A stretch of 38,862 nucleotides of DNA from an uncultured Verrucomicrobiales bacterium (GTDB lineage Bacteria > Verrucomicrobiota > Verrucomicrobiia > Limisphaerales > JAYPXF01), in contig CALBIE010000779.1 of NCBI GenBank assembly GCA_937893495.1, positions 1 to 38,862 on the forward strand, written 5' to 3'. A model generated the notes under the pieces. That model ran no database searches. It was not told the origin of the DNA and was given only the letters and a program-made list of their open reading frames with translations. A program made the translations under genes and the position numbers. Positions 5,434-34,086 of this stretch are shown one piece after another (positions within the stretch are counted from its first letter, which is position 1; the number at the start of each line of letters is the position of its first letter).

Positions 5434-5596
5434 GGGGCGCGGAATTCATTCCGCAGAAATGTCCACCCACAGCCAGCGGTCACGCGCAGCTCCAGATCGT
5501 CGTCGCCCTTCACCATTTCGTGTGTCAGCCCCCCCATCGAAAACCACGAGAGCCAATTGGCAAATCCACGTCTCTGCGGACTGAAGTCCACGCTCC
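5434..5596 (-). repeat. 163-bp MITE-like repeat, family 1 (copy a)
   Basis: This segment aligns, reverse-complemented and without gaps by eye, along its whole 163 bp with 24876-25038. Each end carries a subterminal hairpin of seven-base arms: the + strand left end has GCGGAATTCATTCCGC, and the right end has the variant GCGGACTGAAGTCCAC. Interior blocks such as ACGTGGATTTG, TTTCGATGGG and ACACGAAATGGTG are shared. No transposase is encoded. It fills the intergenic gap between the DUF2145 unit and the LamG gene; the remaining parts of 5095-5689 show no gene. Confidence 0.8.
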
Positions 5597-6412: not shown

Positions 6413-6506
6413 CCCGGTGATTGGAGCGGATCGCGGACGGGGCAGATCGTCGGCGAGGGTTTCCCACCCACCGCCAACGGGCGCATTCGGGCAAAGCCCC
6501 CGAAAT

Positions 6507-6618
6507 GGGAGCGCGCCCAGAATTCAGTCCGCAGAGGCGTTGCAGCACAGAAATCTTCCGTATATCGGTGACGATGGTTGCAAGTGGACATTTCTGCGGC
6601 GTAAACGCCGCGCGCCGG
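6507..6618. repeat. Short MITE-like repeat, family 1 (copy b)
   Basis: About 110 bp bounded by the same kind of ends as copies a and d, but with a shorter interior. The right end has the hairpin GCGGCGTAAACGCCGC, with arms of seven that differ from the GCGGAATTCATTCCGC version at paired positions. Outside the hairpins, a further inverted pair is visible: GCATTCGGGC...CCCCCG near 6483 and its counterpart near 6617-6636. A related CATTCGGGCCGTGCCCCGG also lies near 5342, beside copy a. Confidence 0.7.
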
Positions 6619-6886
6619 GGGCACGACCCGAATGCACCCGCCGGCATCGCGGTCAGACTTTTCGAGTTTCAATTCTCCGGTTTTCGATTCTCAATACCCC
6701 CGTCATGCCAAACGCTATTCCACCCTGCCTCGTTCGCCCGCTGTGCCGACTTTCCATGAACCTTCCGGATTTTGACAAAAGAATGGGGACAAAGGAATGG
6801 GTGGGAAATAATTCCCTTGTCACTATTCCCTTGTCTTTCGGTTCAAGGCCCGTGAGCAGGTCAAAATGGAACAGGAAACTCGCCAT

Positions 6887-13114: not shown

Positions 13115-13262
13115 ACGCATGGTTGAAGTGAGCCGCGAGGCTGCGCCCAGTCGGAGGGATTGCATTCCTTGTGATTGACGGGCGCATCGGATGCAGGCGC
13201 GGGCGGGCGGGCTTTGCGCCGTGCGTTCATGGCGAGGATGTCGCGGGTTTGGAAGGCGAAAG

Positions 13263-13338
13263 GTATCCAAAGCGGTGTCGAGCAACCGCACTCCATGGGG
13301 CGCCCTGAAGTGCGCCGGCTGGACGGCGCTTTGGATAC
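13263..13338. repeat. Family 4 repeat, two 32-bp units head to head
   Basis: Units at 13263-13294 and 13307-13338 are inverted copies starting GTATCCAAAGCGG and ending GCACTCC or its variant GCACTTC. They are separated by 12 bp. The same unit occurs at 28869-28900 and 28978-29009 in the opposite arrangement. Sequence just right of this pair resembles the spacer of the second locus, so this may be the junction of two tandem elements. Confidence 0.75.
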
Positions 13339-13501
13339 GGTGGCCAGACCGGTTGGTGCGTTGGTTGCCGGAAGGGGCCCAGCACGCTGTAGTGTAGCCG
13401 AGAGCGAAGGCAGACTCGTCGCGCCGCAACTGAAAACGAAGGCGGATTCACAAAGGCATGGTCTTGATCTCGCCGCTATCGCTCCGAATCAAAGCCATGC
13501 T

Positions 13502-14192: not shown

Positions 14193-14273
14193 TGTTTCAA
14201 GGATTACTCGCGATCTAAAACTCCGCAAGCCGATCTGAAAATTTGCGTTTCTGCGGAATGAATTCCGCGCTCC
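14193..14273 (-). repeat. Half copy of the family 1 repeat
   Basis: On the minus strand this begins with GGAGCGCGGAATTCATTCC and follows copy d for about 80 bp (shared blocks ATCGGCTT and TGAAACA), then stops matching. The second terminal hairpin is absent. It is a solo end left by truncation. Confidence 0.65.
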
Positions 14274-14436
14274 AACCGCATTGTTCCGATTTGGAGGGCG
14301 GTCACAAACTTCGGGTGATCCTTGCCTGACCGGAACGGGTTCGACCCCTGAACGGCAGCCAGTGCGAATGCGGCAGGTTGCCCGGGCACGCTAATAGCGT
14401 GAACTCCAACTTGGGCGTCAGGTTCGCAATATTGCC

Positions 14437-24680: not shown

Positions 24681-24875
24681 CCACTCCGTCGTAGGATGGA
24701 CATCCTGTCCGTCCTGTGGCGCGTGGACAACGCGGCCGGCTTGCGAATCACTCGCAGCATCCCGATTGCGATGAACCCTCTTCCTTACGGTGTTTCGGTC
24801 GGTTTGAAATCAATCGCTTTCATTCGTGTCAGCCACATGCGCCACGGGACGGACTGAACCGAAACGATGCAGATG

Positions 24876-25038
24876 GAGCGCGGAATTCATTCCGCAGAAA
24901 CGTGGATTTGACAATCGGCTTCCGTGGGTTTCGATGGGTGATTCTGAAACACGAAATGGTGTTGGGTCTCGACGACATGGGGAAGCGCGTAAACGCTGGT
25001 GGAAAGTGGCCGCTTCTGCGGAATGAATTCCGCGCTCC
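24876..25038 (+). repeat. 163-bp MITE-like repeat, family 1 (copy d)
   Basis: Same length as copy a and alignable without gaps, with both terminal hairpins intact (GCGGAATTCATTCCGC at the left and its complement at the right). It lies between the first and second cytochrome operons, 53 bp before the shared palindromic motif. The remaining part of 24681-25090 has no gene. Confidence 0.85.
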
Positions 25039-25090
25039 CGCCGCCCCGATTGCATGGTTCCGGCTGAAAGTCCATCCTACGACGCGTCAT

Positions 25091-28838: not shown

Positions 28839-28868
28839 TAACCATCTGCCCGGACGCAATCACAATTT

Positions 28869-29009
28869 GGAGTGCGGTGGCTCGACACCGCTTTGGATAC
28901 GGCGGCGTGGCACAACCCTTCTGTTTTCATCCGACGCGAGCGACCTGGAAACAAGAACGCCCATCGGCCACTCCGCGGTATCCAAAGCGGCGTCCAGCCG
29001 GCGCACTCC
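28869..29009. repeat. Family 4 repeat: two 32-bp units flanking a 77-bp spacer
   Basis: GGAGTGCGGTGGCTCGACAC... (28869-28900) and its inverted partner GTATCCAAAGCGGCGTCC... (28978-29009) can pair as long terminal arms. The element fills most of the gap between the cytochrome gene and its DUF1501 partner, so any transcript of the operon would carry a strong stem there. The units match those at 13263-13338. Confidence 0.8.
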
Positions 29010-29078
29010 ATATTGGCCATTAGATGCCGGGTAAGTTGACCTGAACCATACTGTTCTCCATCCCAAACAACTCCAGTC

Positions 29079-33933: not shown

Positions 33934-34086
33934 GCGTTCCCCCTCACCCCGGCCCTCTCCCGTCGGGAGAGGGGGAATGGTATCCCGCGTTTGGACGGAG
34001 CCGGACGCTCTCGATTTTCCGGCGACGCTCGTGGCTTCTCCCTCGCCCCTCGGAGGGGAGAGGGCCGGGGTGAGGGGGGGCGAACC
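33934..34086. repeat. Inverted repeat element, family 3, inserted in pglX
   Basis: About 150 bp with perfect inverted ends CTCACCCCGGCCCTCTCCC (left) and its complement (right), each with an inner hairpin. It interrupts pglX between codons for EDAIDA and LTAGQAKDLKQRG. A GACTGACTGAC tandem lies next to the left end and might derive from a target duplication. Confidence 0.8.

What the first reader, a model, noticed from the sequence alone, without database searches (positions are those of the whole stretch)
5434..5596. 163-bp repeat copies with compensatory changes in terminal hairpins
Copies a (5434-5596) and d (24876-25038) have the same length and align without gaps, and copy b and a half copy at 14193 share their ends. 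The subterminal hairpin changes at paired positions: GCGGAATTCATTCCGC becomes GTGGACTTCAGTCCGC (A-T to C-G, plus C-G to T-G) and, in copy b, GCGGCGTAAACGCCGC (two pairs changed). Paired changes suggest selection on structure, in RNA or in single-stranded DNA during transposition, rather than simple inheritance of a palindrome. No transposase is seen, so the family is non-autonomous or acts otherwise.
Basis: partly seen in the sequence, partly recalled or inferred. Interest (0 to 1): 0.62.

Follow-up and report, generated by a model that had tools for sequence, protein, structure and literature searches.

The report
REP hairpins inside IS1380-type miniature transposons
The repeat is the inner part of a dead 205-base miniature transposon that carries two small hairpins, and those hairpins stay intact, with matched changes on both stem sides, while the rest of the old insertion decays; this gives a way to ask why bacteria keep such hairpins.

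Summary
The repeat and its paired stem changes are real, but 163 bp is not the element. In its own genome it is the inner part of a 205-bp miniature transposon (57 copies examined) with 16-bp inverted ends (CCGGAAC[C/G]ATGCA..) and 5-bp YTNAR target duplications. In related genomes the same ends flank IS1380-family transposase genes; this genome shows none, so its copies look immobile. Window copy d is complete (24859-25063, TSD CTGAA) and inverted relative to copy a, whose arms are gone. Copy b is a different element family carrying the same hairpins.

The hairpins (GGNG-C-GCGNNN-TTNA-NNNCGC; 445 exact matches, control 1) look like REP sequences: GGAG tag, inverted pairs, TTNA loop as in published RAYT requirements, and a RAYT gene in this genome flanked by the same design. 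Covariation is strong (96-99% Watson-Crick against 44-53% shuffled).

Main new result: interior and target duplication decay together with age (rho 0.47, p 0.001), while fixed hairpin positions stay about 1% mutated. Stem changes are mostly jumps between a few stem types, so exchange of whole hairpins is as plausible as stepwise compensation. No RNA role is supported.

The parts
24859..25063 (-). Copy d: complete 205-bp MITE (arms + inverted pair of REP-like hairpins)
   Evidence: TIR CCGAAACGATGCAGAT at 24859-24874, left-type arm 25039-25063 ending CCGG
24854..24858 (.). 5-bp target-site duplication CTGAA, left of copy d
   Evidence: direct read
25064..25068 (.). 5-bp target-site duplication CTGAA, right of copy d
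   Evidence: direct read
24875..24895 (+). Copy d hairpin GGAGCGCGGAATTCATTCCGC
25018..25038 (-). Copy d second hairpin (reads GGAGCGCGGAATTCATTCCGC on the minus strand)
5434..5596 (+). Copy a: inner hairpin-to-hairpin part of the same MITE family; outer arms decayed or absent
   Evidence: blast in own genome; arm identity 0.47
5434..5454 (+). Copy a left hairpin GGGGCGCGGAATTCATTCCGC
5576..5596 (-). Copy a right hairpin, type ACTTCAGT with one T.G pair (GGAGCGTGGACTTCAGTCCGC on the minus strand)
6508..6616 (+). Copy b: hairpin pair of a different, about 105-bp element family (outer arms GGGCGCATTCGGGC.. from about 6479)
14203..14289 (+). Half copy: right half with hairpin 14253-14273 and right arm AACCGCATTGTTCCGA 14274-14289

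Best explanation
[quoted passage not shown] It has 16-bp terminal repeats and leaves a 5-bp YTNAR duplication; it was most likely moved by an IS1380-family transposase (shown: ends, duplications, and the same ends on IS1380 elements in relatives; inferred: that this enzyme moved it). Just inside the ends it carries two GGAG-tagged hairpins in inverted orientation. They have the anatomy of REP sequences recognised as single-stranded DNA by REP-associated tyrosine transposases, RAYTs (inferred from tag, stem and TTNA loop; the genome holds such RAYTs). The same hairpin module sits in other, unrelated miniature elements of the genome. After insertion the arms, interior and target duplication drift, but the hairpins are kept near-perfect and change only by matched pairs (shown). 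The cause is either selection on the hairpin (for RAYT or another single-strand DNA-binding protein) or replacement by other hairpins of the genome (inferred, not separated).
For: 205 bp in 40/48 copies; TSD matches 3.69/5 against 2.59 shuffled, maximum 3.02 of 2000. 193 terminal-repeat hits against 13 control; order-wide spread and a 1524-bp IS with the same ends, TSD CTGAG and an IS1380 transposase (NF033539, 3e-75); the end beside IS1380-like genes at further loci. 445 exact hairpin-pattern hits, control 1. Pairs 96% and 99% Watson-Crick against 53% and 44% shuffled; covariation score 0.447 against 0.114. Loop T 113/113, T 111, N free, A 112 of 113, matching RAYT loop rule T-T-N-A in PMC8266576. 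RAYT (NF047646) at C326 flanked by GGAG-c-GCGACC-ttca-GGTCGC. Hairpin fixed sites 1.2% mutated while corrected TSD identity is 0.47; no age trend in hairpins, age trend in interior rho 0.47 p 0.001. G007, another family, has the same MITE ends with different stems but the same loop.
Against: The tag is GGAG, not the canonical GTAG, and the C326 RAYT's own REPs differ in three inner base pairs and in the 3' flank (TTCAA, not AGA), so the cognate enzyme is not proven. No IS1380 transposase was found in this genome (MAG 88% complete), so the mover is inferred from relatives. Part of the copy set was found with hairpin-containing queries; the TIR-selected subset gives 2.5% fixed-site mutation and hairpin identity 0.968 against interior 0.828, so the effect is somewhat smaller there.
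Confidence: 0.8

Rival explanations
1. The hairpin-to-hairpin unit is itself the mobile element (a REPIN moved by a RAYT); the outer arms are a preferred target or later association.
For: Copy a has no recognisable arms. One copy (C19, L024/L061) has its inner part inverted relative to the arms, and L006 has two arms of the same type. Hairpin pairs of other lengths occur in other contexts and genomes.
Against: 56 of 57 inner units keep at least one arm (by inspection), arm spacing is constant, and the target duplication lies outside the arms. The hairpins may still have spread as REPs before being captured.
Confidence: 0.15
2. The element is or encodes a structured RNA and the hairpins are kept for RNA function (terminator, mRNA stability, small RNA).
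For: GC-rich hairpins; REPs in other bacteria can act in mRNA (PMC3733652).
Against: No Rfam match in the window. Alignment folding finds no covariation in the interior (covariation term -0.19). Single-side departures do not clearly favour G.T over A.C on either strand (counts). No T-run follows the hairpins in the copies printed.
Confidence: 0.08
3. Palindromes are kept perfect without selection by template-switch repair within the stem or by gene conversion among hundreds of copies.
For: 20 multi-site stem-type changes against 2 single-site ones on the tree; 19 of 20 double pair changes are transversion pairs although ts/tv is 1.17 elsewhere in the element; type ACGT has loop base C in 24 of 24 while type AATT has C in 24 of 38. 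Conversion has long been proposed for REPs (Higgins 1988, as cited in PMC3116915).
Against: Template switching would not keep the unpaired head GG.GC and loop TT.A at 98-100%. Conversion tracts of about 21 bp are short for homologous recombination (own knowledge).
Confidence: 0.35

Closest known systems
REP / REPIN sequences with RAYT (TnpA_REP), group 3, e.g. Marinomonas REPtron Mb (PMC8266576)
   Same: Short perfect stem, tetranucleotide tag 5' of it, TTNA loop with the third base free, stem mismatches not tolerated, inverted pairs, RAYT genes with flanking copies in the genome
   Different: Tag GGAG instead of GTAG; one spacer base and a 6-bp stem instead of two bases and 5 bp; most copies examined lie inside transposon-like elements; cleavage not tested
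GTAG/CGTC REP dimers inside long palindromes (Anabaena variabilis GTAG-15, Halothiobacillus CGTC-1; PMC3733652)
   Same: REP pair regularly embedded in another repeat with inverted ends; alternative complementary stem residues define subfamilies
   Different: Here the outer repeat is identified as an IS1380-type MITE with target duplications, and its decay dates the hairpins
IS1380 family insertion sequences and MITEs derived from IS ends
   Same: Terminal repeats shared with an autonomous IS1380 element, target duplication, no coding gene
   Different: Subterminal REP-like hairpins that outlast the ends

Membership tests
MITE of the IS1380 family | terminal inverted repeats shared with an autonomous IS1380 element | tested here: met
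   16-17 bp end GCCGGAACGATKCAG shared with the L145 IS1380 element
MITE of the IS1380 family | short target-site duplication | tested here: met
   5-bp YTNAR, 13/45 perfect, well above shuffles
MITE of the IS1380 family | small fixed size, no transposase gene | tested here: met
   205 bp in 40/48
MITE of the IS1380 family | autonomous partner in the same genome | tested here: not met
   none found, MAG 88% complete; present in relatives, so this lowers current mobility, not origin
MITE of the IS1380 family | mobilised by the IS1380 transposase | not testable with these tools
   needs a transposition assay
REP / REPIN (RAYT substrate) | high-copy short palindrome with a 5' tetranucleotide tag | tested here: met
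   445 hits, control 1; tag GGNG rather than GTAG
REP / REPIN (RAYT substrate) | canonical GTAG tag | tested here: not met
   second base G in 112/113, third base A in 93/113; so filed as REP-like, not as a GTAG REP
REP / REPIN (RAYT substrate) | inverted pairs | tested here: met
   84 pairs, 50 of 164 bp, 9 of 105 bp
REP / REPIN (RAYT substrate) | RAYT gene flanked by the same repeats | tested here: inconclusive
   C326 RAYT is flanked by the same design with three other inner pairs; no RAYT flanked by the exact AGA-type hairpin
REP / REPIN (RAYT substrate) | cleavage of the hairpin by RAYT | not testable with these tools
   needs purified enzyme
structured non-coding RNA | match to a known RNA family or interior covariation | tested here: not met

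The most novel reading that the evidence does not exclude
REP hairpins in dead transposon copies are rewritten in place as whole blocks, by RAYT-catalysed strand exchange or a conversion process, so that hundreds of hairpins are kept alike and functional long after the surrounding element has decayed.
Probability: 0.2. Interest if true: 0.75.

Novelty: new variant of a known kind. Interest (0 to 1): 0.5.

Why it matters
Whether REP sequences persist by selection, by conversion or by continued transposition has been open since the 1980s. Here the hairpins sit in a carrier whose age can be read from its own target duplication and interior, so the rates can be separated: hairpins barely change where neutral neighbours change strongly. 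The same carrier with different hairpin stems in another bacterial family makes the comparison repeatable.

Tried and rejected
Three-base TNA duplication and an IS5-type mover: first reading; replaced by a 5-bp YTNAR duplication and IS1380 after the autonomous element was found. Structured RNA: no Rfam hit, no interior covariation. Any RAYT of the genome as cognate: most have their own GTAG-type hairpins; only C326 has the GGAG/TTCA design on both sides. Strand bias of wobble pairs as an RNA test: too few events to decide. The literature searches found no description of GGAG-tagged REPs or REP-bearing IS1380 MITEs in the held library; the GGAG search returned only unrelated papers, so this is weak evidence of absence.

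Full report
OBSERVATION. The two hairpin-ended repeats exist at the stated places. A search of the window's own genome (G000, an 8.0-Mb draft in 900 contigs; window = contig C779) scored 40 of 285 candidates, and essentially all are full-length relatives at 73-79% identity.

TRUE BOUNDARIES. Printing flanks in one orientation showed conserved sequence beyond both hairpins. Of 57 distinct copies extracted, all but copy a keep an outer arm on at least one side, judged by inspection. In 48 copies with both arms the length is 205 bp in 40. Outside the arms lies a 5-bp duplication with consensus YTNAR: mean 3.69 of 5 matches against 2.59 when left and right flanks are shuffled among copies (maximum of 2000 shuffles 3.02). 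Copy d is a clean example with CTGAA on both sides. The arm pattern has 193 hits against 13 for the reversed control.

WHICH TRANSPOSASE. The end sequence occurs in 27 of 58 searched genomes, own included, all of the same order. In G021 two copies lie 1524 bp apart around one open frame, with the duplication CTGAG. The protein is an IS1380-family transposase (NF033539, E 3e-75; PF13701). The end also lies beside IS1380-like genes in a second G021 contig and in G018, and degenerate forms do so in G037 and G053. G000 itself has no IS1380 transposase at E 0.001, so the element is probably immobile there, with the caveat of 88% completeness. Other 190-bp elements with the same ends but without these hairpins also occur.

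THE HAIRPINS. In 113 hairpins from the 57 copies the unpaired head GG.GC and the loop TT.A are nearly invariant, while the third head base and third loop base vary. The degenerate pattern GGNGCGCGNNNTTNANNNCGC has 445 exact matches in the genome and 1 in the control. Among the 100 listed, the two variable inner pairs are Watson-Crick in 96% and 99%, against 53% and 44% expected by shuffling. On 21 distinct sequences, including two from G007 and one from the RAYT locus, the covariation score is 0.447 against 0.114 shuffled and at most 0.113 for slid partners. Each of four representative hairpins folds alone as DNA into the same 6-bp stem and 4-base loop.

REP ANATOMY. Published tests of a group 3 RAYT show that loop bases T12, T13 and A15 are needed, position 14 is free, stem mismatches greatly reduce cleavage, and the tag guides cleavage (PMC8266576). 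The natural variation here follows the same rules. The genome has about 20 RAYT-like genes; one (C326, NF047646) is flanked by GGAG-c-GCGACC-ttca-GGTCGC on both sides. The exact AGA-type hairpin was not found flanking a RAYT, so the cognate enzyme is inferred. Hairpins of this design also sit in other element types of the genome with different outer arms, in related genomes, and in MAGs labelled Acidobacteriota, Chloroflexi and Akkermansiaceae, in other contexts (MAG contamination not excluded).

AGE TEST. If hairpins were inherited passively, they should decay with the insertion. Matching of the target duplication correlates with interior identity to consensus (rho 0.47, p 0.001), so both record age. 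Corrected duplication identity is 0.47 (95% bootstrap 0.35-0.59), while fixed hairpin positions are mutated in 16 of 1350 cases. By duplication class the hairpin rate is 0.8%, 1.7% and 1.0%, without trend. Because some copies were found with hairpin-containing queries, the subset found by outer ends alone matters most: hairpin identity 0.968 against interior 0.828 and arms 0.89, and 2.5% fixed-site mutation in a less filtered set. The effect holds but is smaller.

MODE OF CHANGE. On a tree of interiors and arms, parsimony gives 20 double Watson-Crick pair changes, 13 of them at the innermost variable pair with no mismatched state there. 19 of the 20 are A-T/C-G swaps, that is two transversions, although transitions are slightly commoner elsewhere in the element (571 to 487). 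Counted as whole stem types, 20 changes involve two or more sites and 2 involve one. Loop base and stem type are linked. This pattern suggests exchange among a few standing hairpin types, or very tight limits on allowed stems; it is not the pattern of ordinary stepwise compensation through G.T. Short alignments and parsimony limit this inference.

OTHER CHECKS. RNAalifold of 31 complete copies finds no interior covariation and Rfam has no match in the window. Window neighbours are ordinary genes (DUF1501, planctomycete-type cytochrome/PSD1, ThuA-like).

PRIOR KNOWLEDGE. REP stems with alternative complementary residues, REP dimers inside long palindromes, and REPs in Verrucomicrobia are described (PMC3733652); REPIN structure and compensatory changes in its spacer are described in PMC3116915. 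What is added here is the identity of the carrier, its use as a clock, and the mode of stem change. Hence 'new variant of a known kind', interest 0.5.

Noticed in passing
L024/L061 (G000 C19:6299-6462) and L006 (C807): One copy has its inner part inverted relative to the outer arms, and one has two arms of the same type, suggesting inversion or arm exchange at the hairpins.
   Followed up: partly
window 6479-6640; L062, L063, L065, L066: A second element type carrying the same hairpins (about 105 bp inside, arms GGGCGCATTCGGGCGAAGCCCC) may have 8-9 bp target duplications, so a different mover.
   Followed up: partly
L054/L299 and L080: A third type, arms CAGCAATTCNCATTNTGA, one copy beside a RAYT gene.
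   Followed up: no
G007 loci L146, L147, L251-L270: MITEs with the same IS1380 ends but hairpins GGAAC-GCCGGA-TTCA-TCCGGC or GCCGCA-TTTA-TGCGGC, in another family of the order.
   Followed up: partly
window 13262-13369 and 28863-29015: Another inverted-repeat element family (TGGAGTGCGGTGGCTCGACACCGCTTTGGATAC), unrelated to the finding.
   Followed up: no
window 33939-34078: 26-bp near-perfect inverted repeat CCCCCTCACCCCGGCCCTCTCCC with 88 bp between the arms.
   Followed up: no
G000: About 20-25 Y1 transposase genes, several flanked by their own GTAG hairpins: many coexisting REP systems in one genome.
   Followed up: partly
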